Below, piece after piece: positions 5,803 through 42,812 of a stretch of 43,041 bases of DNA. The notes below the pieces were generated by a model. The model was not told the DNA's origin. It saw only the letters and a list, made by a program, of their open reading frames with translations, and searched no databases. The DNA comes from an uncultured Bacilli bacterium. Lineage in GTDB: Bacteria; Bacillota_I; Bacilli_A; RF39; UBA660. Position numbers and translations under genes: made by a program. The stretch covers positions 1 through 43,041 of the forward strand of contig CALVII010000004.1 in the NCBI GenBank assembly GCA_944329465.1, given 5' to 3'. Within the stretch, counting starts at the first letter, position 1. Each line of letters opens with the position of its first letter.

Positions 5803-6561
5803 ATGAAGGTAAAAAGTATTAAAAAAGTAGGCAATAAATATAAGATAATTTTAGATAATGAGGAAGTAATAACCACTAATGATCAGGTTATTATTAACAA
5901 TAACCTTTTATATGATAAAAAACTTAGTAAAAAAGAATTGGAGAAGATAAAAGAGGATACTAATTATTATGAAAATTATAATAAAATATTAAAAATGATA
6001 AATAGAAAGATTAGGTGTGAATTTGAAATAAGGAAGAAACTTAATAAGCTATCTAAAGTAGATCAGGATAAGATGATAGATCACCTGAAAGAAGTTGGTT
6101 TGATAGATGATTCTTTATTTGCTGAAAGCTATGTTAATGATAAAATTAATTTAACTTTAGAAGGACCTTATAAAATAAGAAAAGAGTTAGAGGCTTATAA
6201 TATAGATAATGATTATATAGAAAGATCTTTAGAAAGTTTTTCTCAAGATTTAATTGATAGTAAATTAGAAAAAATAATAAATAAAAAAATTAAGTCAAGT
6301 ACTAAAGATACTACTTATATTTTTAAACAAAAAACATCTTTATATTTATTAAATTTGGGTTACAGTAGGGAAGATGTTATTAATCATTTAGAGGGTGTTA
6401 AACTGAATAATGATTTAGGAAAAGAGATGTTTAAGATTTATAATAAATTAAAAGCAAAGTATGAAGGTTATACTTTGCGCGTTAAATTAAAACAGAAATT
6501 ATATTCTAAGGGGTTTACTTCTGATGAGATAAATGATTTTATAGAAAAAACAGTTCATTAA
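5803..6561 (+). CDS. recX: Regulatory protein RecX
   Basis: 252 aa, RecX family, a modulator of RecA filament dynamics in homologous recombination and the SOS response. The N-terminal ~50 residues form a small beta region (VKSIKKVGNKYKIILDNEE), typical of long Bacilli RecX. Then come tandem three-helix RecX repeats, with R-x-R-x-E-x-x-x-K-L-like signatures at INRKIRCEFEIRKKL, VGLIDDSLFAESYVND and the final repeat YTLRVKLKQKLYSKGFTSDEI. It has its own promoter. The gene ends convergently with the foldase gene, the two stop codons overlapping by four bases within one hairpin. recA is not in the window. Confidence 0.88.
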   Translation: MKVKSIKKVGNKYKIILDNEEVITTNDQVIINNNLLYDKKLSKKELEKIKEDTNYYENYNKILKMINRKIRCEFEIRKKLNKLSKVDQDKMIDHLKEVGLIDDSLFAESYVNDKINLTLEGPYKIRKELEAYNIDNDYIERSLESFSQDLIDSKLEKIINKKIKSSTKDTTYIFKQKTSLYLLNLGYSREDVINHLEGVKLNNDLGKEMFKIYNKLKAKYEGYTLRVKLKQKLYSKGFTSDEINDFIEKTVH

Positions 6562-6577
6562 TTTGAGCTGTTTTTGG
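6546..6577. terminator. Bidirectional terminator over the recX/prsA overlap
   Basis: AAAAACAGTTCA (6546-6557) pairs with TGAGCTGTTTTT (6564-6575), with one G-T wobble and loop TTAATT. The loop contains the stop codons of both convergent genes. Confidence 0.75.
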
Positions 6578-7550
6578 TATTAGTGGCAAGTGCAGAATTG
6601 ATAGAATTATCATAAGATTTTTTGAGTTCGTCATCGGAAATTTCTAGGTTGTATTTTTTTCTTAGAGCCATTAAAGCTTTAGTTTGTAAGGTTGAATCAT
6701 TATTGATTTTTTCTTCGGTAAGTTTATCTATAACATCTTCTTTAACATCTTTTAATTTTGGTTTTTCTTTTTGGCTAATACGGTAAATGATATGATAACC
6801 ATATTCTGATTTAACAGGTGTTTTTGAATATTCACCATCTTTTAAATCATTAACGCCATCCCAAAATTCGTCGACAACTGAACCATAAGTGACAGTAAGT
6901 TTTCCACCTTTACTAGCAGTTCCTTCGTCATCAGAATATTTTTTGGCTAGATCGGCAAATTTTTCACCTTTATCTAATTTTTTGATAATATCTTCAGCTT
7001 CTTTTTTAGCTTCTTTTTCAGCTTTTTCTTTTTCTTCGTCAGTCATATCCTCTTTAGTATTAGGACTGATTAAAATATGTCTAGCTTCAATATCACCAAA
7101 AATGTTGTCGTCATAATATTTTTGGATTTCATCGTCAGTTAATTCGTCTTTGACATAATTTTCAGTAACGATATTTTTCTTATATTCCAAAATTAATTCT
7201 TCTTTAAATTCTTCTTCGTCAGTATATCCTGCAGATGTTAAAGCGGCATTAAAGTCTTGTCCGTAACTTTGATATGATTTTTTATATGAACTTAATTGAG
7301 AGTCGGCGTAAGCTTTAGCATCTTCGTCAGTTTTAATTTCCTTATTTACAATAAATGAATCAATCATATTAGTTAAAGTAACTGCACCACCTTGTTTTTT
7401 TAATTCGCCATATAAATCTTCAGCTGTAATAGATTTACCATCCATTTTGGCAACAACTTCTTCACCATTTTTCAAAGTAGCTATTTTTCCACAACCAGTA
7501 AGCATTAGGGCCGCTACTAAGAGTAAAGCAAATGTTTTTTTCTTATTCAC
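6558..7550 (-). CDS. prsA: Foldase PrsA-type lipoprotein, parvulin peptidyl-prolyl isomerase
   Basis: 330 aa from a GTG start. A lipoprotein signal peptide (VNKKKTFALLLVAALMLTGC) ends in a lipobox whose Cys would be lipidated, placing the protein outside the cytoplasmic membrane. An N-terminal chaperone segment (EEVVAKMDGKSITAEDLY) is followed by a parvulin domain: ARHILIS, FADLAKKYSDD, a Gly-rich GTASKGGKL and a closing SEYGYHIIYRI. PrsA helps exported proteins fold at the membrane-wall interface. The GTG at 7550 is chosen because AAAGGAAGA sits six bases upstream and the signal peptide starts there; a longer frame to 7601 would add a non-signal-like extension. It could serve the many secreted fibre proteins in this window (inference). 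Confidence 0.92.
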   Translation of the reverse strand: MNKKKTFALLLVAALMLTGCGKIATLKNGEEVVAKMDGKSITAEDLYGELKKQGGAVTLTNMIDSFIVNKEIKTDEDAKAYADSQLSSYKKSYQSYGQDFNAALTSAGYTDEEEFKEELILEYKKNIVTENYVKDELTDDEIQKYYDDNIFGDIEARHILISPNTKEDMTDEEKEKAEKEAKKEAEDIIKKLDKGEKFADLAKKYSDDEGTASKGGKLTVTYGSVVDEFWDGVNDLKDGEYSKTPVKSEYGYHIIYRISQKEKPKLKDVKEDVIDKLTEEKINNDSTLQTKALMALRKKYNLEISDDELKKSYDNSINSALATNTKNSSN

Positions 7551-10100: not shown

Positions 10101-10125
10101 AATATCAGAATAGGAGATGGAAATT

Positions 10126-10626
10126 ATGGAAGACATGCATAAATCTTCAATTATTATGGTTTTATTAGCGGTTGTATTTGTTATGGCTATTGGTTATGCG
10201 GCATTTTCTCAACAATTAACAATTAATGGTACAGCATCAATTGATTCTAGCTGGGATGTTCACATTGAAGATATTGCTGTAAATGGTACTACTTTAGATG
10301 GTAAGAATGTCAGTGCGACTGTGGGAGACGATAAATTAAGTGCGAGTTTTCAAGCTGAATTAGTTAGTCCTGGTAGTAGTGTAACTTATGATGTGACAGT
10401 TAAAAATGGTGGAACATTAAATGCTAAATTAGAGTCTATTACATTTACTGACGATAATAATGATGCTATAGAGTATAGCTATGCTGGTATTACTCAAAAC
10501 GATGTTATTAATGTGGATGGAACTCAAACATTTACGGTTACTGTAAAATTTAATGATACTTATACTTCAACACCTGCAAATAAAACTAGTAATTTAACTA
10601 TGTATTTATCATTTGTTCAAGCTTAA
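10126..10626 (+). CDS. TasA/camelysin-like secreted fibre protein 1
   Basis: 166 aa from the ATG at 10126, chosen because AGGAG lies nine bases upstream (the ATG at 10117 abuts it). The N-terminal signal segment VLLAVVFVMAIGYAAFSQQL, followed by TINGTASIDSSWDVHI, is characteristic of the SipW-dependent CalY/TasA family (camelysin and biofilm fibre subunits). Cleavage is expected near the AAFS/QQL junction. The mature part is an all-beta domain with the family pattern SPGSSVTYDVTVKNGGTLNAKLESI, and it ends NLTMYLSFVQA. It is first of a tandem set of four that leads to a SipW-like peptidase. Its role as an extracellular fibre or surface coat subunit is inferred from the family. Confidence 0.85.
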   Translation: MEDMHKSSIIMVLLAVVFVMAIGYAAFSQQLTINGTASIDSSWDVHIEDIAVNGTTLDGKNVSATVGDDKLSASFQAELVSPGSSVTYDVTVKNGGTLNAKLESITFTDDNNDAIEYSYAGITQNDVINVDGTQTFTVTVKFNDTYTSTPANKTSNLTMYLSFVQA

Positions 10627-10655
10627 ACGTTAGATTTTTTTCTAACGTTTTATTT
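10625..10655 (+). terminator. Terminator of TasA-like gene 1
   Basis: AAACGTTAGA (10625-10634) pairs with TCTAACGTTT (10641-10650) around a T6 loop, followed by TATTT. It overlaps the stop codon. Confidence 0.8.
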
Positions 10656-10667
10656 ACACATTTTCAC

Positions 10668-10719
10668 TTGAAATTGAAAATTAAATATGGTAATATCATA
10701 ATAGAGTAGGAAAGCTACT
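10668..10719 (+). promoter_or_regulatory. Promoter and 5'-UTR hairpin of TasA-like gene 2
   Basis: TTGAAA (10668-10673), 17 nt, TAATAT (10691-10696) with extended TGG. About 9 nt later AGTAG-GAAAG-CTACT (10705-10719) can form a hairpin at the extreme 5' end of the transcript. The same arrangement occurs at 11379-11430 and 12065-12119. Confidence 0.7.
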
Positions 10720-10741
10720 TAGAAAATAGGAGGGAAGAAAC

Positions 10742-11305
10742 GTGGAAGCAAAACACAAAAATGCCTTAATTGGAGCATTACTTGCAGTAGTATTTGTAAT
10801 GGCAGTTGGTTATGCCGCATTTGCACAACAATTAACAATCAACGGAAGTGCTGAAATCACCTCAAGATGGGATGTTCATATGAAACAAGAAGGAGCAACT
10901 GCAACTCCATCATCTACAATGGGAACAAATCCATCAGGTGATGTACAAGTTGCAGGAGGTGGTTTAACAGCTACATTTAATACAGAATTAGTAAGTCCAG
11001 GAGATACTGTAACATATGTTATTCCAATTGAAAATAAAGGAACAATTGATGCAAGATTAAGTACAATTACTTTATCAAGTGAAACTCCAGAAATGGTTGT
11101 TGATAATGGAAGGTTAACTGCTACAACAAAAGATGGCGATATTAAATATACTGTTACTAGTCCAGGGAATGAAACTTTAGCGGCTAATACTGGTACTGCA
11201 AATGTTACTATTGTTGCTGAATTTGTCAATAAAGCAGAAGGACAAGGAAATCTTCAAAATTTATCAGCAAATTTAACTGTAACAATGAATTATGTTCAAG
11301 CTTAA
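10742..11305 (+). CDS. TasA/camelysin-like secreted fibre protein 2
   Basis: 187 aa starting at a GTG preceded by GGAGGGAAG. The signal region (ALLAVVFVMAVGYAAFAQQL, then TINGSAEITSRWDVHM) is almost identical to that of the next two paralogues, pointing to recent duplication. The mature beta-sandwich carries SPGDTVTYVIPIENKGTIDA and ends LTVTMNYVQA. There are no cysteines. The predicted substrate of the SipW-like peptidase encoded downstream, it would be exported by Sec, trimmed and assembled on the surface. It has its own promoter, 5' hairpin and terminator, and C-ending codons are commoner than in neighbouring housekeeping genes, suggesting high expression. Confidence 0.87.
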   Translation: MEAKHKNALIGALLAVVFVMAVGYAAFAQQLTINGSAEITSRWDVHMKQEGATATPSSTMGTNPSGDVQVAGGGLTATFNTELVSPGDTVTYVIPIENKGTIDARLSTITLSSETPEMVVDNGRLTATTKDGDIKYTVTSPGNETLAANTGTANVTIVAEFVNKAEGQGNLQNLSANLTVTMNYVQA

Positions 11306-11324
11306 GTTTTTACTTAAGCTTTTA
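11298..11324 (+). terminator. Terminator of TasA-like gene 2
   Basis: AAGCTTAAG (11298-11306) pairs with CTTAAGCTT (11313-11321), then a short T-rich tail. It overlaps the stop codon. Confidence 0.8.
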
Positions 11325-11378
11325 TCATGTAATTTAAACACATTTAACAAATGTATACAAAAAAACGAGAAAAATTTC

Positions 11379-11430
11379 TTGAATTGTAAATCAAAATATG
11401 ATAATATCATTATAGAGTAGGGAAGCTACT
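11379..11430 (+). promoter_or_regulatory. Promoter and 5'-UTR hairpin of TasA-like gene 3
   Basis: TTGAAT (11379-11384), 17 nt, TAATAT (11402-11407) with extended TGA. The hairpin AGTAG-GGAAG-CTACT (11416-11430) lies about 9 nt after the -10, as in gene 2. Confidence 0.7.
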
Positions 11431-11457
11431 TAGAATATTATAGGAAGGAAGGAAAAA

Positions 11458-12021
11458 ATGGAAAGTAAACACAAAAATGCGTTAATTGGAGCATTACTTG
11501 CAGTAGTATTGGTTATGGCTGTAGGTTATGCAGCATTTGCTCAACAATTAACAATCAATGGTAGTGCTGAAATCACATCTACTTGGGATGTTACATTTGA
11601 TGAAACAAAAACTGGTGGTGCAGGTGTAATTGATGCTACAGCAGGTATAGCTAGTGGTAAAACTCCAACTGGTACAGTTAGTTATGATAATGGAAATCAT
11701 AATGCTAATATTAGTGCAACATTATATCAACCAGGAGATACTGTTTTATTTACATTAACAATCAAAAATAATGGTACAATTCCTGCTACTATTGGAGCTC
11801 CTACAGTTGCTATGGATGGCGACGAAAATGACGGCGCATTAATTGCTAAAAAAGGTAATATACAATTTACTGTAACAGCAGCAGATACAAAAACACTTAA
11901 CCAAAATGATACAGTTACTATGACAGTTAAAGCTGAATTCATTAGTTCTGCAACATCTGTTGGTGATACTACTTCAGCTAAAGTTACAATTAATATGAAC
12001 GCTTCACAAGCAACTGCTTAA
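11458..12021 (+). CDS. TasA/camelysin-like secreted fibre protein 3
   Basis: 187 aa with an ATG start behind AGGAAGGAAGG. It has the same signal segment as gene 2 (MESKHKNALIGALLAVVLVM, then AVGYAAFAQQLTINGS). The mature domain is closely related to gene 4: both carry TVSYDN, HNAN, ATLYQPGDTV and TLTIKN-GTIPAT segments and end in MNASQA. Gene 2 lacks these segments, so 3 and 4 form a subtype. It is predicted to be a SipW-processed extracellular fibre subunit, with its own promoter, 5' hairpin and strong terminator. Two fibre subtypes in one array suggest structural division of labour, such as major subunit versus adaptor (inference). Confidence 0.87.
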   Translation: MESKHKNALIGALLAVVLVMAVGYAAFAQQLTINGSAEITSTWDVTFDETKTGGAGVIDATAGIASGKTPTGTVSYDNGNHNANISATLYQPGDTVLFTLTIKNNGTIPATIGAPTVAMDGDENDGALIAKKGNIQFTVTAADTKTLNQNDTVTMTVKAEFISSATSVGDTTSAKVTINMNASQATA

Positions 12022-12026
12022 AGTGT

Positions 12027-12061
12027 AAAACAAAAAAACTTTTTATAGTTTTTTTTGTTTT
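12027..12061 (+). terminator. Terminator of TasA-like gene 3
   Basis: AAAACAAAAAAACT (12027-12040) pairs with AGTTTTTTTTGTTTT (12047-12061). Confidence 0.75.
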
Positions 12062-12064
12062 GTC

Positions 12065-12119
12065 TTGAATGAAAAAAACAATTATGATATATTATAAATA
12101 AAGTAGGAAAGTGCTACTT
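12065..12119 (+). promoter_or_regulatory. Promoter and 5'-UTR hairpin of TasA-like gene 4
   Basis: TTGAAT (12065-12070), 17 nt, TATATT (12088-12093) with extended TGA. The hairpin AAGTAG-GAAAGTG-CTACTT (12101-12119) starts at the expected transcription start. Confidence 0.7.
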
Positions 12120-12139
12120 TGAGAGAAAGGAAGGAAAAC

Positions 12140-12703
12140 ATGGAAAGTAAACACAAAAACATATTAATAGGTACACTACTTGCAGTAGTATTTGTAATGG
12201 CTGTAGGTTATGCCGCATTTGCACAACAATTAACAATTAACGGAAGTGCTGAAATTACTTCAACTTGGGATGTAAAATATGATTCAACAAAAACAGAAGC
12301 TACTCCAGGTGTAGTTGATGCAGTAGCTGGTTTTGCTGGAGGAACAACTCCAAAAGGTACAGTTAGTTATGATAACGATGATCATAATGCTAATGTTCGT
12401 GCAACATTATATCAACCAGGAGATACCGTTACATTTACATTAACAATTAAAAACTATGGTACAATTCCTGCTACTGTAGGAACTCCAACCGTTGAAATGA
12501 CTGGTGACCAAGATGTTCAACCATTAGTTGCTAGAAAAGGTAATATTCAATTTACTGTAACACCAGCAGCTACTACAACAATGAATCAAAATGATACAGT
12601 TACTATGACAGTAAAAGCTGAATTCATTAATTCTGCAACTTCTGTTGGTACAGCCACTTCTGCAAGTATCACTGTTAATATGAATGCTTCACAAGCACAG
12701 TAA
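12140..12703 (+). CDS. TasA/camelysin-like secreted fibre protein 4
   Basis: 187 aa from the ATG at 12140, chosen over an upstream TTG because GAAAGGAAGGAAAAC immediately precedes it and the paralogues begin MESKHKN. The signal segment AVGYAAFAQQLTINGS is identical to those of genes 2 and 3, and the mature domain is a close paralogue of gene 3 (shared YDN-HNAN, LYQPGDTV, GTIPATVGTPTVEM, MNASQA). A SipW-type cleavage site is expected before QQL. It has its own promoter, 5' hairpin and a long 16-bp terminator stem, so the peptidase gene that follows is transcribed separately. Confidence 0.87.
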   Translation: MESKHKNILIGTLLAVVFVMAVGYAAFAQQLTINGSAEITSTWDVKYDSTKTEATPGVVDAVAGFAGGTTPKGTVSYDNDDHNANVRATLYQPGDTVTFTLTIKNYGTIPATVGTPTVEMTGDQDVQPLVARKGNIQFTVTPAATTTMNQNDTVTMTVKAEFINSATSVGTATSASITVNMNASQAQ

Positions 12704-12879: not shown

Positions 12880-14022
12880 ATGAAAAAAAACCTAGTAATA
12901 TATAGTTTAATCATTATATATTTTGTTTTAAATGTTTTTCTCATAATCCCACTTGGTCTTGACTTTTATAACGAAATAATTAACCCACTTTTGTGGATTA
13001 TCATTTGTGCGGTTGCTATTTTTTTAAGCCGGGATTCGAGTTTGAGAGTTAAGGGTGAACGAGATAAAACCCAGAGTTTAATTATTACGCTTATAATTTA
13101 TATAATTGTTTATTTCTTATTAGGATTAATTTTTGGCTTTGAAAAGACACCTTATTCAAAAGATTTATTTAGTATATTAAAAAACATATGGTCTTTTGGT
13201 GGACTTATTTTCTTCCAAGAATTTATCAGAGAAGCGTTAGTAAAAAACGAAAAGAAAAAAGCATGGAATTATATTTTTATGACTATTTTATTTATGTTAA
13301 TTAATTTAAATTATTCTAACATAAGTAGTCATTTTACTGAGTTGAAGGAATTATTTATTTATTCTTCAACGACATTAGTTCCGGCACTTTTAGAAAGTGC
13401 GATATGTACTTATTTAGTATTTATAGGTGGGGCTAAATTTTCTATAATTTATAGATTATTTGTAACTATACCGCCATTTATTGTTCCAATTATTCCAAGT
13501 TTGGATTGGTTTGCTTCTGCAATATTAGGAGTAACTTTACCGCTTGCGGTATATGTTTATATGAATTATGTTCATGTAAATAGATCAGAAAGACTTTCTA
13601 AAAGAGAAAGAAGAACTTACAATCCAGTTGTTTATGTTCCGGTATTTGCTTTTATTGCATTATTGGCGGGATTTGTAATGGGATTATTTAAATATCAACC
13701 AATTGCAGTGTTATCTGGTAGTATGTCACCAACATTCAATAGAGGTGATGCAGTTGTAGTTAATAAATTAACAACAAGAGAAAAAGACGAACTTAAAAAA
13801 GGTGATATCATACAGTTTGTTAGTGGAACTAAGTATGTTGTCCATAGAATAGTTGACATCACAAATGATAATTATGGTAATAAACAATTTATCACTAAAG
13901 GTGATCACAACAATGCGATAGATGTTGGCAAAGTTGCTTTAGAAGATGTAAAAGGAAAAGTATCATTTGTAATACCATTGATTGGATATCCATCAGTATG
14001 GTTAAGTGGTGCAATTTCATGA
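12880..14022 (+). CDS. SipW-like signal peptidase I with N-terminal polytopic membrane domain
   Basis: 380 aa. The C-terminal third (about 250-370) is a signal peptidase of the SipW/ER type: Ser281 in VLSGSMSPTF, His322 in YVVHRIV (His in place of the bacterial Lys) and Asp342 in TKGDHN. SipW-type enzymes cleave TasA/camelysin-family precursors, and four such genes lie just upstream, so these are its likely substrates. The first ~245 residues form an additional multi-pass domain of about seven helices, absent from classical SipW (about 190 aa). It contains QEFIREALVKN and ALLESAICTYLVF, possibly a membrane-protease-like fold, but I cannot assign it. It has its own promoter and AAAGGGG ribosome site and is followed after 16 nt by the DUF5305 gene. 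Confidence 0.88.
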   Translation: MKKNLVIYSLIIIYFVLNVFLIIPLGLDFYNEIINPLLWIIICAVAIFLSRDSSLRVKGERDKTQSLIITLIIYIIVYFLLGLIFGFEKTPYSKDLFSILKNIWSFGGLIFFQEFIREALVKNEKKKAWNYIFMTILFMLINLNYSNISSHFTELKELFIYSSTTLVPALLESAICTYLVFIGGAKFSIIYRLFVTIPPFIVPIIPSLDWFASAILGVTLPLAVYVYMNYVHVNRSERLSKRERRTYNPVVYVPVFAFIALLAGFVMGLFKYQPIAVLSGSMSPTFNRGDAVVVNKLTTREKDELKKGDIIQFVSGTKYVVHRIVDITNDNYGNKQFITKGDHNNAIDVGKVALEDVKGKVSFVIPLIGYPSVWLSGAIS

Positions 14023-24649: not shown

Positions 24650-25141
24650 ATGAAAAAAAATATAGTGATAACTTTTTTGATTGGTATATTTTGTATTATG
24701 AGTATTGTTTATGCGGCGTTTTCGCAATCTTTAAATATAACTGGTTCTGCTTCTATAGATAGTAGATGGAATATTAAAATAACAGATGTGACAACTAAAA
24801 ATATTGTTGGAGATGCAGCTAAGGCTTTTGAACCGGTTGTTTCTGATACTGCAGTCACTTTTAAAACTAATTTAGTTTCACCTGGAGATAGTATGACATA
24901 TTCGGTTACTGTAACTAATGATGGAACTATAGATGCAAAAGTGGATAGTATTGATATCACTGATTCTAAAAATCCGGCTATAACATTTAATACGTTAGGT
25001 ATTGGTGAAAATGATTTATTAGAAGTTGGTGATACTCAAACATTTGATGTGGTAGTTACTTATAGCAATGCGGTTACTTCTCAACCTCAAGACACATCGG
25101 CTACTTTAACGGTTAAAATCAATTATGTTCAAAATGCATAA
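24650..25141 (+). CDS. TasA/camelysin-like secreted protein 5
   Basis: 163 aa, a fifth and more diverged paralogue of the fibre family, 9.5 kb from the SipW-like gene. The signal region MKKNIVITFLIGIFCIMSI then VYAAFSQSLNITGSASIDS keeps the AAFS/Q cleavage context. The mature domain has SPGDSMTYSVTVTNDGTIDAKVDSI and ends LTVKINYVQNA, most like TasA-like protein 1. It is preceded by AGGTGAGG and by a weak TTATAATTG -10-like sequence after the LTA operon terminator. It should depend on the same SipW-like peptidase. Codon use is AT-rich like its neighbours, unlike genes 2-4 of the array. Confidence 0.83.
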   Translation: MKKNIVITFLIGIFCIMSIVYAAFSQSLNITGSASIDSRWNIKITDVTTKNIVGDAAKAFEPVVSDTAVTFKTNLVSPGDSMTYSVTVTNDGTIDAKVDSIDITDSKNPAITFNTLGIGENDLLEVGDTQTFDVVVTYSNAVTSQPQDTSATLTVKINYVQNA

Positions 25142-26355: not shown

Positions 26356-28395
26356 ATGTTAATATATGAGGGAGGTGAAATAATTAAAAGATATCCATTT
26401 GTTAAACAACGTGGTATAAGAGATTGTGGACCAGCATGCATCCAAATGATTTTAAAATATTATCATGGATATGTCAGTTTAGATAAGTTAAGTGAAATGG
26501 CAAATGTCACAAAAGAAGGAACTACGGCTTATAATTTAAAAGAAACGTTAGAAAACTTAGGCTTTTATAGTTATGGATTAAAATCTGAAGATATTCATGA
26601 ATTAAAATTACCATGTATTGCTCATGTAATAATAAATCACTCCTACAAGCATTATATTGTGATATATAAAGTTAATTTTAAAAAAGAAAAACTTTTGATA
26701 GCAGATCCTGCATCTGGTTTAAAACGAATTACTTTTGAAGAGTTTAAGCAAATATGGGGTGGTGTATCTATCCACATGTATCCAAATACACATATAGTTT
26801 ATGAACCTAAGCCCAAAGCTTTAAAATTTATCTGGTATTATATAAAAAAACACGTATATTTAGTTATATTAATTCAATTTGTAAGTTTAATTTTTCATCT
26901 TTTTAATATTCTTTCTACTCTGTTTATACCTTTGACTATTTCTCTTTATGGTAATTGGAATAAAGTTTATTTAATTATTAAGATATTTTTAGTAATATAT
27001 GTAATTAAAAATTTATTTCTATTTATTAAAAATAAACTTATTTTAAAGCTTAATTTGGACTTAGATCAAGAACTTCAAGTGGATGTTTTTGAAAAAATAT
27101 TAAACCTTCCTTACCGTTATTACCGAAGGAAGACCACAGGGGAGATTACTAGTTATTTTAATGATTTATATATAATTAGAAATGGTGTTATTAATTTCGT
27201 TCAAATTTCTTTTATTGAATTATTTTTCTTTATAATTTTGATTATATTAATTTTTAATATAAATAGTTTAGTATTATTAATGCTTCTTATTTTATTATTT
27301 TTAAATTTTGTAGTGATGTTTATTTATCAAAAAAAGAAAGATGTATGGTTAAGTGAGAATATTAGGCATAGAGCTTTGATAAACTCTTATATTACTGAAA
27401 GTATAATTGGTTTTGAAACCATTAAGAATTTAAACATAACTTATAAAATATATAATAAATTTAAAGACAAATATCAAATGTTTTTAAATACAGCTAAGAG
27501 ATTGTTTGCTTTCGAAATGAAGTTTGATTTTTTTAAAAATTTTTCTAATGATTTTAGTACTTTTTTTATAATTTTGGTGTTATTACTTTTGAAAATTAAC
27601 ATGCATGATTTTATAATTTTGTTTCTTTTATCTATGATGTTATTTTCTTTATTTGAAAATATATTAAATTTTTATTATCAGATTAATGAAGTGAGATCAG
27701 CTTTAATTAATATAGTGGAATTAATATCGAAAAAATCAGAAAACTTAAATTTTACTTTGGCAAATGGCAATATAGTTATTAAAAATTTAAATTATACATA
27801 TGATAAAATTAATTATGTTTTAAAAAATGTCAATTTAGTAATTGAGAAGGCAAGTAAAGTTATGGTTACTGGTAATAGTGGTTCTGGTAAATCTACTTTA
27901 TTTAAAATAATTAAGGGTTATTATAATGAATATAAAGGAAGTATTAAAATAGGTAATCTCGAATTAAATGAAAATCATTTTGATAATATTATTTATGTTT
28001 CACAAAAAGAATTTTTATTTACAGGTTCTTTAAAAGATAATTTGAATTTAAAGGAAGAAAATTCTAAATGCATTAAAATATGTGAGATAGATGATTTTGC
28101 TTCAAATGATTATTATGATTTGATTGAAGAAGATGGTTTTAATATATCAGGTGGTCAAAGGCAGCGAATTGTTTTGGCTAGGGCTTTGAATGGTTTTGAT
28201 ATTTTAATTATTGACGAAGGTTTAAACCAAGTGAGTGTAGATATGGAAAGGAGAATTTTAAAAAAATTATTTAATACTTATCCAAATAAAACAATAATTT
28301 ATATTTCACATAGATTAGATAATTTGGATTTATTTGATCAATATATCAAAATGAATAATGGAAAAGTGGTCATTAATACTAAACGTAATAACTAG
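26356..28395 (+). CDS. Peptidase C39-containing bacteriocin ABC exporter
   Basis: 679 aa if started at the ATG. The N-terminal C39 peptidase has Cys24 in RDCGPAC, His99 in HYIVIY and Asp117 in IADPASG, the triad that cuts double-glycine leaders. About five to six membrane helices follow (160-440). The ATPase domain has Walker A GNSGSGKST (about 506-514), signature ISGGQRQRI (about 597) and Walker B ILIIDEGLNQ (about 616), followed by IIYISHRLDNL. It exports and trims leader peptides; two matching small genes start 12 nt downstream. Start: the ATG at 26356 has no ribosome site, whereas a strong GGGAGGTG (26369-26376) precedes ATA (26380) and ATT (26383), where homologues begin (M-IKRYPFVKQ). 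The true start is probably one of these rare codons. Confidence 0.93.
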   Translation: MLIYEGGEIIKRYPFVKQRGIRDCGPACIQMILKYYHGYVSLDKLSEMANVTKEGTTAYNLKETLENLGFYSYGLKSEDIHELKLPCIAHVIINHSYKHYIVIYKVNFKKEKLLIADPASGLKRITFEEFKQIWGGVSIHMYPNTHIVYEPKPKALKFIWYYIKKHVYLVILIQFVSLIFHLFNILSTLFIPLTISLYGNWNKVYLIIKIFLVIYVIKNLFLFIKNKLILKLNLDLDQELQVDVFEKILNLPYRYYRRKTTGEITSYFNDLYIIRNGVINFVQISFIELFFFIILIILIFNINSLVLLMLLILLFLNFVVMFIYQKKKDVWLSENIRHRALINSYITESIIGFETIKNLNITYKIYNKFKDKYQMFLNTAKRLFAFEMKFDFFKNFSNDFSTFFIILVLLLLKINMHDFIILFLLSMMLFSLFENILNFYYQINEVRSALINIVELISKKSENLNFTLANGNIVIKNLNYTYDKINYVLKNVNLVIEKASKVMVTGNSGSGKSTLFKIIKGYYNEYKGSIKIGNLELNENHFDNIIYVSQKEFLFTGSLKDNLNLKEENSKCIKICEIDDFASNDYYDLIEEDGFNISGGQRQRIVLARALNGFDILIIDEGLNQVSVDMERRILKKLFNTYPNKTIIYISHRLDNLDLFDQYIKMNNGKVVINTKRNN

Positions 28396-28406
28396 AAAGG
28401 GGTTAT

Positions 28407-28541
28407 ATGGAATTAAGTAATCAAGATTTAATGCGGGTCAAAGGAGGAGGCTATGGAGTATGGGCAATACTAGGAGGTATTTTTACCTTCTTAATAAGTG
28501 CGATTGAAGGCTTTTTAAATCCTATAGAGTGTAATTCATGA
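28407..28541 (+). CDS. Putative class II bacteriocin peptide A, double-glycine leader
   Basis: 44 codons. The leader MELSNQDLMRVKGG (14 aa) fits the double-glycine consensus LSxxxLxxIxGG. The mature peptide would be 30 aa: hydrophobic, starting GYGVWAILGGIF, with AILGG and SAIEG motifs (GxxxG-like) and one Cys near the C-terminus (ECNS). An AAAGGGG ribosome site lies upstream. The gene is 12 nt after the C39 exporter, which should cut after GG and export it. It overlaps peptide B by ATGA, and such pairing is typical of two-peptide (class IIb) bacteriocins. No immunity gene is recognised. It could instead be a signalling peptide. Confidence 0.8.
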   Translation: MELSNQDLMRVKGGGYGVWAILGGIFTFLISAIEGFLNPIECNS

Positions 28542-28702
28542 TTTTAAAAGATAGTGAACTTATGACAATTACAGGTGGTAGTATAACAGCCACATTTATA
28601 AATGCGATTGTGAAGGGATTAGAGCTTTTAATAGAACTTGGAAAAAGCCTCGGTTCTTCATTTAGAAGAATAACTAGTGGGGCGACCTGCGGTATTAAGT
28701 AA
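28538..28702 (+). CDS. Putative class II bacteriocin peptide B, double-glycine leader
   Basis: 54 codons. The leader MILKDSELMTITGG (14 aa) again matches the LSxxELxxIxGG form. The 40-aa mature part begins SITATFINAIVKGLELL, contains a true GxxxG motif (GKSLG) and the basic segment FRRITSG, and ends ATCGIK with a single Cys. It is amphipathic and net cationic. It is translationally coupled to peptide A (ATGA overlap; weak GAGTG ribosome site inside gene A) and followed by a perfect terminator. The GxxxG motif and pairing support a two-peptide bacteriocin. One Cys in each partner could allow a disulfide between them (inference). Confidence 0.8.
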   Translation: MILKDSELMTITGGSITATFINAIVKGLELLIELGKSLGSSFRRITSGATCGIK

Positions 28703-28720
28703 GCTTTTGCTTACTTTTTT
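28697..28720 (+). terminator. Terminator of the bacteriocin operon
   Basis: AAGTAAGC (28697-28704), loop TTTT, GCTTACTT (28709-28716), then TTTT: perfect 8-bp stem overlapping the stop codon. Confidence 0.9.
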
Positions 28721-28798: not shown

Positions 28799-29002
28799 AT
28801 GACAAAAGTAGTAGTTAGAAATGGTAATGTCGATGGTGCACTTAGAAACCTAAAAGCTGCCAATAGTAAAGATGGCTCCCTAGCACAATTAAGAGAAAAA
28901 CAAGACGGTTACTTAAAGCCGGGAGTTAGAAGAAGAAATGCGAAAAAAGAAGGCATTAAAAACACTCGTCGTCGTAATCGCCGTGAAAATCGCGGATATT
29001 AA
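28799..29002 (+). CDS. rpsU: Ribosomal protein bS21
   Basis: 67 aa. Small-subunit protein S21: VVVRNGNVDGALRNLKAAN, then a very basic tail (KPGVRRRNAKKEGIKNTRRR). It sits near the anti-Shine-Dalgarno region of 16S rRNA. Length is slightly above the 57-58 aa common in Bacilli. A GGGAGGG ribosome site is present. It is followed by yqeY, the standard Bacilli arrangement. A small hairpin GCCATATATCATGGC (29007-29021) with T-rich tail lies between the two genes and may attenuate transcription into yqeY. Confidence 0.95.
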   Translation: MTKVVVRNGNVDGALRNLKAANSKDGSLAQLREKQDGYLKPGVRRRNAKKEGIKNTRRRNRRENRGY

Positions 29003-29488: not shown

Positions 29489-29510
29489 ACTTTGTGTCTA
29501 CTTTTATTAT
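29481..29510. terminator. Bidirectional terminator between yqeY and the collagen-like gene
   Basis: AAAAGTAGAC (29481-29490) pairs with GTCTACTTTT (29496-29505), loop TTTGT, with A- and T-runs on the two sides. It covers the yqeY stop and lies just beyond the stop of the minus-strand gene. Confidence 0.85.
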
Positions 29511-30559
29511 TATGGTCCAGTAGGTCCAGTAGGTCCAGTAGGTCCGGTTGGTCCGGTTGGTCCAGTTGCACCAGTGGTTCCAGCAGGTCCAGTAGGTCCG
29601 GTTGCACCAGTAGTTCCAGCAGGTCCGGTAGGTCCGGTTGCACCAGTAGTTCCAGCAGGTCCAGTAGGTCCGGTTGGTCCGGTTGGTCCAGTTGCACCAG
29701 TGGTTCCAGCAGGTCCGGTAGGTCCGGTTGCACCAGTAGTTCCAGCAGGTCCGGTAGGTCCGGTTGCACCAGTGGTTCCAGCAGGTCCGGTAGGTCCGGT
29801 TGCACCAGTAGTTCCAGCAGGTCCGGTTGGTCCAGTTGCACCAGTAGTTCCAGCAGGTCCGGTAGGTCCGGTTGCACCAGTAGTTCCAGCAGGTCCGGTT
29901 GGTCCGGTTGCACCAGTAGCTCCAGCAGGTCCAGTAGGTCCGGTTGCACCAGTGGTTCCAGCAGGTCCGGTAGGTCCGGTTGCACCAGTGGTTCCAGCAG
30001 GTCCGGTAGGTCCGGTTGCACCAGTAGATCCAGCAGGTCCGGTAGGTCCGGTTGCACCAGTAGTTCCAGCAGGTCCAGTAGGTCCGGTAGGTCCAGCTAT
30101 GGTACTAGCAGAACCAGTAGGTCCTGTGGCTCCAGCTGGTATTGTTAAATTTAAAAATAAATTTGGTGTAGTTCCAGTAATACTTGCACTGGCTTGACTG
30201 CCAGGAGCACCAGTAGTTACTGTTCCTATTGTAATATTAGGTGAAGCACCAGTAGGTCCAGTTGCACCAGTAGTTCCAGCAGGTCCAGTAGGTCCAGTTG
30301 CACCAGTAACTCCAGCAGGTCCAGTAGGTCCAGTAGCTCCAGCTGGAATACTAAATGTTAATACAGCATTTTGGTTTGTTCCGGTGTTTGATACGGTTGC
30401 TGGTGTTCCAGGAGCTCCAGTAGTTGTTGTCCCAACAACTACTGTTGCAGGTCCTGTGGGTCCAGTTGGGCCAGTAGGTCCTACATTTCCAATTTTGGCT
30501 TGGCAACGTCTTCCTTCTTCTAATATTTGTTCTATTTTGTTATTACAGTTATTATTCAT
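29510..30559 (-). CDS. Collagen-like GXT-repeat surface (exosporium-type) protein
   Basis: 349 aa. The short N-terminal head [20 protein letters not shown] has two cysteines, followed by [13 protein letters not shown]. Two non-collagen inserts ([20 protein letters not shown]..., [20 protein letters not shown]...), each ending in a [14 protein letters not shown]-like strand, interrupt the collagen. A long run of [12 protein letters not shown] repeats continues to the stop. Thr-rich G-X-T triplets resemble BclA-type spore exosporium glycoproteins, where Thr carries sugars. There is no signal peptide and no C-terminal globular trimerisation domain: the stop follows a GPT triplet directly. Context (spore former, AAAGGAGTG ribosome site) suggests a spore-surface filament. 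Repeat collapse in assembly or natural contraction could have changed its length. Confidence 0.87.
29513..30107 (-). repeat. Tandem coding repeats of the collagen-like gene
   Basis: About 600 bases of 9-, 18- and 36-base units encoding GPT, GPTGPA and [12 protein letters not shown]. Units are nearly identical at DNA level (GGTCCAGTAGGTCCGGTTG-type on the plus strand) and are locally far richer in GC than the rest of the window. Copy number is likely variable through slippage or recombination. Confidence 0.92.
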
Positions 30560-40554: not shown

Positions 40555-41673
40555 ATGACTTATTTAGATTATAGTGCGACAACACCGGTTGATAAGGAAG
40601 TTTTAAAAACTTTTAATAAAGCTACAGAGTTTATAGGAAATCCTAATTCACTTCACAGTCTTGGTGTAAAAGCTAAACATTTGATAGATGCGAGTACAAA
40701 CCAAATAGCTCAAATATTAAATGTTAAACCATCGGAGATAATCTATACATCTGGTGCATCTGAAAGTAATAATACGGTTATTAAGGCAATGGAGAGGTTT
40801 CAAAATAGGGGTAAACGTATTATAACTACAGCTTTAGAACATTCTTCGATTTATGCTCCTTTAAAATGGCTAGAAGAAAAGGGATTTAAAATAGATTATG
40901 TACCTTTAGAAAATGGATTAGTTAATTTAGATGTTTTAGAGAGTATGCTTAGTGACGATACGGTTTTAGTTACTATTGCTATGGTTAGTAGTGAAACTGG
41001 TATACGTCAGCCAATTGAACAAATAGGTAAGCTTTTAAAGAAATATCCGAAAATAATCTTTCATAGTGATATAACTCAAGCGGTTGGTAAAATTAAATTT
41101 GATTTAACTGATGTTGATGCAGCTAGTTTTTCAGCTCATAAATTCTTTGGCTTTAAAGGAATAGGCGTTTTATATAAAAAAGAAAATTTGATTTTAGAAC
41201 CTTTAATAGCTGGCGGTAAAAGTACAACGGTATTTCGAAGTGGAACTCCACCTTTAGAACTTATTGCCTCGATGGCTAAGGCTTTAAGGTTAAGTTATGA
41301 AAATATCGATGGTGATATTTTAAAAGTGAAAAAACTAAATGAAAGGTTAAAACAAAATTTATCTTGTTATCCAAATGTATCTATCAATAGTAATGAGTTT
41401 TCAGTGCCTCACATTTTAAATATTAGTGTTAAAGGAATAAAACCAGAAACATTATTACATAGTTTAGAGGCAAAAGAGGTATATATTTCAACTCAAAGTG
41501 CATGTTCGTTAAATAATGCTTCAGAATCCGTTTTAGCTTTGACTAATGATATGGATAGAGCTAAAACGAGTATTAGAATAAGTATTTCTAAAAAAACTAC
41601 TGACGAGGATATTAATAATTTTATAGAAGTTTTTGGTGATAGTTATAAAAATTTATTGGAGGAAAGATTATGA
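40555..41673 (+). CDS. Cysteine desulfurase (NifS/IscS-like)
   Basis: 372 aa PLP enzyme that moves sulfur from cysteine to a protein persulfide. It starts MTYLDYSATTPVDKEVL, then NPNSLHSLG, TSGASESNNTVIK, the PLP-binding Lys196 in SFSAHKFFG and the persulfide Cys317 in STQSACSLNNAS. It may supply Fe-S assembly or tRNA thiolation; a thiI or iscU partner is not adjacent, so the route is open. The ATG at 40555 has AGGAGG eight bases upstream, laid across the mutL stop. It overlaps the next gene by ATGA. Confidence 0.93.
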   Translation: MTYLDYSATTPVDKEVLKTFNKATEFIGNPNSLHSLGVKAKHLIDASTNQIAQILNVKPSEIIYTSGASESNNTVIKAMERFQNRGKRIITTALEHSSIYAPLKWLEEKGFKIDYVPLENGLVNLDVLESMLSDDTVLVTIAMVSSETGIRQPIEQIGKLLKKYPKIIFHSDITQAVGKIKFDLTDVDAASFSAHKFFGFKGIGVLYKKENLILEPLIAGGKSTTVFRSGTPPLELIASMAKALRLSYENIDGDILKVKKLNERLKQNLSCYPNVSINSNEFSVPHILNISVKGIKPETLLHSLEAKEVYISTQSACSLNNASESVLALTNDMDRAKTSIRISISKKTTDEDINNFIEVFGDSYKNLLEERL

Positions 41674-42812
41674 AAAAAATATTATTTATTTTGACATTAA
41701 TTTTAATTTTACCATTTTCTAAAGTACAGGCAAAGGAGACCTCTGTTACTTTATTTTGGGGCGACGGATGTCCACACTGTGCAGAGGAAGAAAAATATTT
41801 AGATATTTTAAAACAAGAACTAGGTGATAATTTAAATATTACCAAATATGAAGTGTGGAATAATAAAGAAAATAATGAATTATTAACTAAAGTTAGGAAT
41901 GTTTTAAATGATGATAATGAGGGTGTACCATTTTTGGTTATTGGTAATAAGTATTTTACAGGTTATACTGAAGATATGGCTAAAGAAATTAAAAAGGCTA
42001 TATTTGATAATTTAAAACAAAATCATTTGAATATTGTCGATCTTGTTAAAAAAGGTGAGGAAATTCCAACTTCGATGACTTTAAATGAAAATCCAACCAT
42101 TCATTTTTCTTTATTAGGTAATGTTGATGCGAAAGAGGTAAATACAACATCTTTAGCTTTAACTGAAGGAATGAGTGATGCGATAAACTTAGGCTCTTTA
42201 TGGATTATGTTATTTTTATTTGGGATTTTGCTTTCAGTATATAATAAGAAAAAACGTTTTATTTTAGGTAGTATATTTGTACTTACGAGTACACTTACTT
42301 ATGCAATATTGGGCTTGAGTGGAGCTGAATTTACTATAAATCAAACAGCATTTATTAGAAGTTTCATAAGTATTATTGCCATTATAATTGCCGGAGTAAG
42401 TATTGATGCTTATATGAAAATAAATATTCCTAAAAAAAGTATCTTACAAAAACTTCAAGAATTATTTGGTAAAAAACAGATGATTATATATGCGATAAGT
42501 ATAATTATTACGAGTGTTATAGCAACCTTTGCCTTAGTTAATCAAGCGAATTCTTCGCCAGCTTTATTTAAAACAGTACTTGAAATTCAAAATGTTGCTG
42601 GTATTAGTTATGCTTTAAATATTATTTTATATTATTTAGCTTATTTAATTACTAGTTTAATTTTATTTATGGTTATAAATGTAATTGTAAAGGAAATATT
42701 TATTGAAAATACAATAGGTACTTATAATAGATTAATTGCTGGTATTGTTATGCTTGTTGTAGCCGCTTTAATTTTATTTATTCCAAATATCTTTATGATG
42801 GTTTTACCATAG
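41670..42812 (+). CDS. Thioredoxin-like plus CcdA/DsbD-like membrane protein without membrane cysteines
   Basis: 380 aa. A signal or anchor (MKKILFILTLILILPFSKVQ) leads to an extracytoplasmic thioredoxin-fold domain with WGDGCPHCAEEE (Cys34-Cys37) and a cis-Pro loop EGVPFLVIG. After about 150 comes a six-helix membrane domain. Related thiol carriers keep a cysteine in DGFNPCAMW- and NxxCSAG-type segments; the aligned places here read SDAINLGSLWIML and VNQANSSPALF, and the whole membrane part has no Cys. Electron passage across the membrane is therefore unlikely. It overlaps the desulfurase stop (ATGA). The name rests on overall pattern, so the family is only moderately sure. Confidence 0.75.
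   Translation: MKKILFILTLILILPFSKVQAKETSVTLFWGDGCPHCAEEEKYLDILKQELGDNLNITKYEVWNNKENNELLTKVRNVLNDDNEGVPFLVIGNKYFTGYTEDMAKEIKKAIFDNLKQNHLNIVDLVKKGEEIPTSMTLNENPTIHFSLLGNVDAKEVNTTSLALTEGMSDAINLGSLWIMLFLFGILLSVYNKKKRFILGSIFVLTSTLTYAILGLSGAEFTINQTAFIRSFISIIAIIIAGVSIDAYMKINIPKKSILQKLQELFGKKQMIIYAISIIITSVIATFALVNQANSSPALFKTVLEIQNVAGISYALNIILYYLAYLITSLILFMVINVIVKEIFIENTIGTYNRLIAGIVMLVVAALILFIPNIFMMVLP

What the first reader, a model, noticed from the sequence alone, without database searches (positions are those of the whole stretch)
26356..28702. Minimal two-peptide bacteriocin locus: C39 exporter plus two overlapping double-glycine peptides
Seen: a C39-peptidase ABC exporter with an intact Cys/His/Asp triad, then two small ORFs (28407-28541 and 28538-28702) with leaders ending KGG and TGG that fit LSxxxLxxIxGG, coupled by ATGA and closed by a perfect terminator. 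Peptide B has a GxxxG motif (GKSLG); peptide A has AILGG and SAIEG. These are class IIb marks. The operon interrupts the usual rsmD-coaD order and has no recognisable immunity or regulator gene. The mature peptides look unlike bacteriocins I can name.
Basis: partly seen in the sequence, partly recalled or inferred. Interest (0 to 1): 0.8.

Follow-up and report, generated by a model that had tools for sequence, protein, structure and literature searches.

The report
Family-wide exported two-peptide pair
Nearly every member of a whole family of tiny-genome gut bacteria carries, in one fixed place, a transporter that trims and exports two small partner peptides resembling two-part bacterial toxins, each ending in a conserved cysteine; relatives add a small membrane protein that looks like a copy of one partner and may protect the producer.

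Summary
In detail: an intact C39 (PCAT) exporter at 26356-28395 and two ATGA-coupled double-glycine peptides at 28407-28541 (PepA) and 28538-28702 (PepB), closed by a perfect terminator. It is not an ordinary accessory bacteriocin. The PepB profile hits 51 of 54 sampled genomes of the window's family and essentially none of 341 others in the class; the locus is syntenic, one per genome as a rule, and vertically inherited. Mature peptides are under purifying selection (dN/dS about 0.2), more strongly than their leaders. Each peptide ends in a near-invariant Cys (114/117 PepA, 115/117 PepB), and the one lineage whose PepB lacks it has also lost the canonical PepA tail. The window's genus has a stripped form. 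Other genera add gene D, a truncated membrane-fusion-protein adaptor also found beside mycoplasma C39 exporters, and gene C, an approximately 50-aa membrane peptide overlapping the pepB stop whose C-terminal half resembles mature PepB (0 of 300 shuffles reach the score). Best reading: a core, secreted, membrane-active two-peptide pair, perhaps joined by its Cys residues, with C as a partner-mimicking immunity peptide. Antibacterial activity, the disulfide and C's role are inferred. New variant of a known kind.

The parts
26383..28395 (+). C39 peptidase-containing ABC exporter; probable ATT start at 26383 (ORF from ATG 26356). C39 domain about 26392-26787 with Cys24/His99/Asp117, membrane domain about 26866-27648, ATPase about 27820-28221
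   Evidence: Pfam; alignment to ComA and PCAT1; start codon from relatives
26370..26376 (+). ribosome-binding site GGGAGGT, conserved ahead of the exporter in the genus
   Evidence: sequence and relatives
28407..28448 (+). PepA leader MELSNQDLMRVKGG
   Evidence: ORF list; family alignment, invariant G13 G14
28449..28541 (+). mature PepA, 30 aa, one hydrophobic helix, C-terminal Cys (codon 28530-28532), and stop
   Evidence: family alignment, invariant G35 P39 C42; dN/dS 0.21
28538..28579 (+). PepB leader MILKDSELMTITGG, start overlapping the PepA stop (ATGA)
28580..28702 (+). mature PepB, 40 aa, one long helix with GxxxG (GKSLG) then RR, C-terminal Cys (codon 28688-28690), and stop
   Evidence: family alignment, invariant G35 G39 R44 C51; AlphaFold helix 18-47; dN/dS 0.18
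28697..28716 (+). intrinsic terminator, perfect 8-bp stem that includes the PepB stop codon
25778..26311 (+). rsmD, upstream syntenic neighbour (context, not part of the system)
   Evidence: TIGR00095 over cut-off; synteny
28799..29002 (+). rpsU, downstream syntenic neighbour (context), followed by yqeY
   Evidence: S21 over cut-off; synteny

Best explanation
A core peptide-secretion module of one family of uncultured gut Bacilli. Shown by sequence: a PCAT exporter with intact C39 triad and ATPase, and two translationally coupled double-glycine peptides, inherited together vertically, conserved as a pair and purified in their mature parts. Inferred: the C39 domain cuts both leaders after GG and the exporter releases PepA (hydrophobic helix, mostly ending IDGxxRPxxC) and PepB (cationic amphipathic helix with GxxxG, ending RRxxxxxxC). 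Outside, the helices pair as in class IIb bacteriocins, possibly joined by a disulfide between the two C-terminal cysteines, and insert into membranes. The most likely use is damaging neighbouring cells, which would release lipids, nutrients and DNA to an organism that lacks fatty-acid synthesis and keeps ComEC. In other genera a short adaptor (D: one membrane helix plus the beta-barrel of membrane fusion proteins) assists export, and a 44-70 aa membrane peptide (C) carrying a PepB-like segment gives self-protection by pairing with PepA in place of PepB. The window's genus works without C and D.
For: Exporter. Pair always together: 112 loci with both. Family-wide and family-only: 51/54 genomes of the family; outside it only 3 weak leader hits in 341; no viral contig. 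Vertical: neighbour and exporter distances correlate (Mantel r 0.89), 10 of 12 strong splits shared, 1 conflicting pair. Selection: mature dN/dS 0.21 and 0.18, leaders 0.52 and 0.45, exporter 0.275. Cysteines: 114/117 and 115/117; in the one lineage whose PepB lacks the C-terminal Cys the canonical PepA RPxxC tail is gone too (L241; L104 second pair). PepB helix across GxxxG. D: NF045999 in 9/18 members, best 2e-4; nearest solved folds are membrane fusion proteins BesA, Spr0693, MacA, CusB, AcrA (Z up to 8.3, rmsd 3.0-4.0, 78-98 residues). C: overlaps the pepB stop by 6-25 nt in all 24 loci; hhalign to PepB P 6e-5, to PepA none; 0/300 column shuffles reach the score either way. Known short immunity proteins such as CbnZ (42 aa, one helix, directly after cbnXY) have this size and position (PMC6957408). 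Lifestyle: fabF absent in 43/44 genomes of the genus, ComEC present in 40/44.
Against: No activity, secretion or disulfide has been measured. Bacteriocins are usually accessory, mobile and diversifying; this is core and purified. The window's genus has neither C nor any recognisable immunity gene, so if the pair kills, producers must resist in another way. Mature PepA of the window has no positive charge (direct reading), unlike most class IIb peptides. Co-loss of the cysteines rests on a single lineage. The C-to-PepB similarity covers only about 26 columns.
Confidence: 0.5

Rival explanations
1. Secreted signal pair: PepA and PepB are pheromones or a census cue exported by a ComA-like transporter and sensed by a receptor encoded elsewhere, for example to switch on competence.
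For: The best solved relative of the exporter is ComA. ComEC is retained in 40/44 genomes, and in two genomes comEC lies directly, or one gene, upstream of the exporter (L070, L074). Some leaders touch ComC models weakly. Core and purified, unlike weapons.
Against: Two obligate, long, helical, membrane-type peptides are unusual for signals; no histidine kinase or regulator is adjacent; a signal common to more than 40 genera would carry no species identity; gene C resembles PepB, as expected of immunity rather than of a receptor.
Confidence: 0.2
2. Self-directed or structural role: the pair assembles in or on the producer's own envelope (pore, anchor or attachment factor), or acts on the animal host.
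For: Universal vertical retention, purified mature sequence, no immunity gene in the genus; a C39 exporter plus D sits at a housekeeping site in mycoplasmas with no peptide gene adjacent.
Against: Double-glycine export of a two-helix GxxxG pair is typical of two-peptide bacteriocins; a PepB-like anchored peptide in relatives fits protection better.
Confidence: 0.2
3. Ordinary accessory class IIb bacteriocin recently acquired by this strain.
For: Leader similarity to class IIb models.
Against: Same place and same peptides across the family; vertical tree; none in viral contigs.
Confidence: 0.05
4. Gene C is an unrelated small membrane protein whose GxxxGTxxR segment is a generic helix-packing motif, so partner mimicry is not real (a rival to that part of the explanation only).
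For: Only 26 columns align, probability 65-71%; GxxxG is common in membrane helices; reversed PepB scores 15.3 against 24.2.
Against: P 6e-5, 0/300 shuffles either way, no match to PepA, and some C ends match PepB ends closely (L253 LLNLGRYLGTVARYVAEGNIC).
Confidence: 0.35

Closest known systems
Class IIb two-peptide bacteriocins (lactococcin G, carnobacteriocin XY, lactobin A/cerein 7B models)
   Same: Two adjacent double-glycine precursors, helical cores with GxxxG, PCAT export; leaders match class IIb models in many members (TIGR03949 in 24/26 PepA).
   Different: Mature parts match no named family; one near-invariant C-terminal Cys in each partner; core to a whole family and vertically inherited; no dedicated large immunity protein; activity unknown.
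Short class IIb immunity proteins (CbnZ 42 aa, BrcI 53, EnkIaz 52, AbpIM 55; PMC6957408)
   Same: Gene C has their size and hydrophobic helix and, like CbnZ, lies directly after the structural genes.
   Different: C's C-terminal half resembles its partner peptide PepB; I found no report of such mimicry in the papers searched. Absent from the window's genus.
PCAT exporters ComA and PCAT1 (PDB 8hf7, 4ry2)
   Same: Full-length homology with C39, membrane and ATPase domains.
   Different: About 680 aa, below the TIGR01193 cut-off (298 against 524 bits); served by a short adaptor or by none.
Mycoplasma Mbov_0121 exporter with MAG1140 protein (NF045998, NF045999)
   Same: C39 exporter followed directly by a D homologue.
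   Different: Followed by ybeY-cdd-era; no double-glycine peptides found beside it.
Pneumococcal rtg and S. mitis CabAB (PMC7018657, PMC13059744)
   Same: PCAT-exported GG peptides giving a competitive advantage; a two-peptide bacteriocin that lyses neighbours and feeds DNA uptake.
   Different: The rtg locus is variable and pheromone-regulated and cab is competence-regulated; this one is fixed, with no adjacent regulator.

Membership tests
Peptidase-containing ABC transporter (PCAT, C39) | C39 domain with Cys-His-Asp fused to an ABC exporter with Walker and signature motifs | tested here: met
   Pfam domains; alignment to ComA/PCAT1 with C24, H99, D117, GNSGSGKST, SGGQ
Class IIb two-peptide bacteriocin | Two adjacent precursors with double-glycine leaders and a PCAT | tested here: met
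[quoted passage not shown]
   PepB G35-G39 invariant, helix predicted; PepA has only GxxxG-like spacings, read directly
Class IIb two-peptide bacteriocin | Both peptides needed for antimicrobial activity | not testable with these tools
   needs synthetic peptides
Class IIb two-peptide bacteriocin | Dedicated immunity protein | tested here: inconclusive
   absent in the window's genus; candidate C in 24 of 72 loci of other genera; function untested
Lactobin A/cerein 7B family (TIGR03949) | Score over the curated cut-off | tested here: not met
   window PepA 16.6 bits against 21.5; other members reach E 4e-8
Membrane fusion protein (gene D of other genera) | Membrane anchor plus beta-barrel domain; lipoyl and coiled-coil hairpin in full-length members | tested here: inconclusive
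   anchor and barrel present, Z up to 8.3 with membrane fusion proteins filling the top rows; at 130-152 aa no lipoyl or hairpin domain is seen
MAG1140 family (gene D) | NF045999 over cut-off and place beside a C39 exporter | tested here: inconclusive
   family members below 35 bits (9/18 match, best 2.1e-4); place beside exporter shared with mycoplasmas

The most novel reading that the evidence does not exclude
A whole bacterial family depends on a fixed, core two-peptide membrane weapon whose partners are covalently joined through C-terminal cysteines, and producers protect themselves with a membrane-anchored imitation of one partner that captures the other: immunity by partner mimicry, a mechanism for a class whose immunity has been called a mystery.
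Probability: 0.22. Interest if true: 0.85.

Novelty: new variant of a known kind. Interest (0 to 1): 0.6.

Why it matters
These gut bacteria are uncultured and stripped of basic pathways, yet nearly all keep a peptide-export pair, across more than 40 genera. If it is a weapon, it is a core trait of the lineage rather than an accessory one, and could explain how an organism without fatty-acid synthesis obtains lipids. Gene C makes the open question of two-peptide immunity directly testable: does an anchored look-alike of one partner block the other?

Tried and rejected
Viral contigs: none. C and D sought in all 44 genomes of the genus: hits at E 2e-4 to 1 match mostly the membrane helix of unrelated proteins, or PepB itself; read as absence. 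My first PepA test demanded a Cys in the pattern, so it was redone with profiles. An immunity gene between pepB and rpsU was rejected: 97 bases only. Peptide genes beside the mycoplasma exporters: none; the downstream genes are ybeY, cdd and era. D against the PDB by sequence: nothing credible; by structure, yes. Family-level models for C: nothing. No paper found describing this locus in the library searched; preprints and most subscription journals are not held. The order name RF39 is my inference from class, genome size and missing fabF, not a database label. A PepA-PepB complex model could not be run here.

Full report
OBSERVATION. The exporter has C39, membrane and ATPase domains and aligns over its length with pneumococcal ComA and with PCAT1. 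The catalytic Cys24, His99 and Asp117 and the Walker A and SGGQ motifs are intact. PepB starts inside the ATGA that ends PepA, and its stop lies in the stem of a perfect terminator.

DISTRIBUTION. A search of 148 relatives found a good exporter match in nearly every genome of the window's family. Around it the order is ylbD-ylbE-rsmD-[exporter-PepA-PepB]-rpsU-yqeY-rpsB-tsf throughout the genus and recognisably beyond it. A PepB profile run on 395 genomes spread over the class hit 51 of 54 genomes of the family and, elsewhere, only three weak leader-type matches. A scan of viral contigs found none. The named records are uncultured gut MAGs, at least some ruminant, labelled Bacilli, Firmicutes or Erysipelotrichaceae. 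Genomes are about 1 Mb; 43 of 44 in the genus lack fabF, as described for order RF39 (PMC6784871). The order name is my inference.

INHERITANCE AND SELECTION. On 24 loci with all genes, distances of the housekeeping neighbours correlate with those of the exporter (r 0.89) and of the peptides (r 0.89); 10 of 12 strongly supported neighbour splits recur in the exporter tree and one pair of splits conflicts. Within the genus, dN/dS is 0.21 and 0.18 for mature PepA and PepB, 0.52 and 0.45 for their leaders, and 0.275 for the exporter. So the exported parts, not the leaders, are what selection holds.

THE PEPTIDES. Profiles classified 4604 small ORFs from 130 loci: 117 PepA and 117 PepB; 112 loci have both. 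Consensus PepA ends FxIGxIDGxxRPLKC; consensus PepB has LINAIVKGxxxIxELGRSLGSAIRRIxSGxxC. 114 PepA and 115 PepB have a Cys in their last ten residues. The exceptions for PepB are L104 (second pair) and L241, one lineage, and there the PepA partner has also lost its RPxxC tail. This single co-loss, plus near-invariance, suggests that the two cysteines belong together, for instance in a disulfide. AlphaFold gives PepB one helix from residue 18 to 47, across the GxxxG.

THE MISSING GENES. In 46 of 72 loci from other genera a third gene, D, lies between exporter and PepA. Nine of 18 members match the mycoplasma family MAG1140 weakly. In mycoplasmas that family directly follows a C39 exporter, upstream of ybeY-cdd-era. 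The model of D (pLDDT 84.6) is one membrane helix plus a beta-barrel; the 23 best structural rows are nearly all membrane fusion proteins (BesA, Spr0693, MacA, CusB, AcrA, EmrA; Z 6.6-8.3). D is thus best read as an export adaptor without coiled coil or lipoyl domain. Z near 8 is modest, but the consistency of the family is telling.

In 24 loci a fourth gene, C, starts 6-25 nt before the end of pepB. It encodes 44-70 aa: a basic N-terminus, a hydrophobic helix, then a segment LGxxxGTxxR. The rows of its alignment were picked by position and length, not by similarity. Profile comparison aligns this segment with the end of mature PepB (P 6e-5) and finds nothing with PepA; none of 300 column shuffles of either side reaches the score. 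The five closest pairs give dN/dS of 0.20-0.48 for C, so the frame is selected. Proven short immunity proteins of two-peptide bacteriocins have this size, and CbnZ this position, and their mechanism is described as a mystery (PMC6957408). I therefore propose that C protects by standing in for PepB. This is inference.

The window's genus has neither C nor D: 0 of 40 loci, and genome-wide searches gave only membrane-helix noise or PepB itself. Since D is shared with mycoplasmas and most other genera, loss in this genus is the simpler account.

FUNCTION. I favour a membrane-active pair used against neighbours. A lineage without fatty-acid synthesis but with ComEC (40 of 44 genomes) would gain lipids and DNA from lysed cells; CabAB of S. 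mitis is a working example of bacteriocin-fed DNA uptake (PMC13059744). In two genomes comEC lies directly, or one gene, upstream of the exporter. Signalling and self-directed roles remain open, because universal retention and purified sequences are unusual for a weapon and the genus shows no immunity gene.

VERDICT. Real, selected and family-wide; a new variant of a known kind. What is shown: gene content, conservation, inheritance, selection, and the resemblance of C to PepB and of D to membrane fusion proteins. What is inferred: cleavage, secretion, disulfide, killing, immunity.

Noticed in passing
window 26370-26385: The exporter seems to start at ATT (ATA or ATC in close relatives) behind a perfect GGGAGGTG; other members of the genus have ATG at that codon, and some have a stop codon just upstream. 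A conserved rare start codon may throttle expression.
   Followed up: partly
L070 and L074 (oriented on the exporter; comEC at 25-2100 and 643-2724): In two genomes of the genus comEC lies directly (L070) or one gene (L074) upstream of the exporter instead of rsmD; in L074 a comEA-like ORF precedes it.
   Followed up: partly
L205-L218 (mycoplasma genomes): Mycoplasma C39 exporter plus MAG1140 protein sit upstream of ybeY-cdd-era with no GG peptide found nearby; the substrate of that core exporter is unknown.
   Followed up: partly
L223 and L243: These loci carry an extra PepA-like GG peptide without C-terminal Cys between D and PepA.
   Followed up: no
L104 (oriented about 6440-7020) and L241: Duplicated or altered pair in one genus: the A peptide loses RPxxC but has an internal Cys, and B loses its C-terminal Cys.
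   Followed up: partly
L068 1355-2254 and L073 6411-7379 (oriented); L075 6703-7386: Unrelated ORFs inserted beside or inside the locus: large ORFs that look like transposase-type genes in two genomes, and a methyltransferase-like ORF between PepA and PepB in L075.
   Followed up: no
window 10117-12703, 12880-14022 and 24650-25141: Five paralogous secreted proteins with YAAFxQxLxITGxA-like starts, four in tandem beside a signal-peptidase-like ORF; they resemble a TasA/SipW-type matrix locus by eye.
   Followed up: no
window 29510-30559 (-): Collagen-like [12 protein letters not shown] repeat protein just after yqeY.
   Followed up: no
window 41670-42812: Membrane protein with an N-terminal thioredoxin-like CPHC motif and no Pfam match above cut-off; a possible source of extracellular disulfides.
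   Followed up: no
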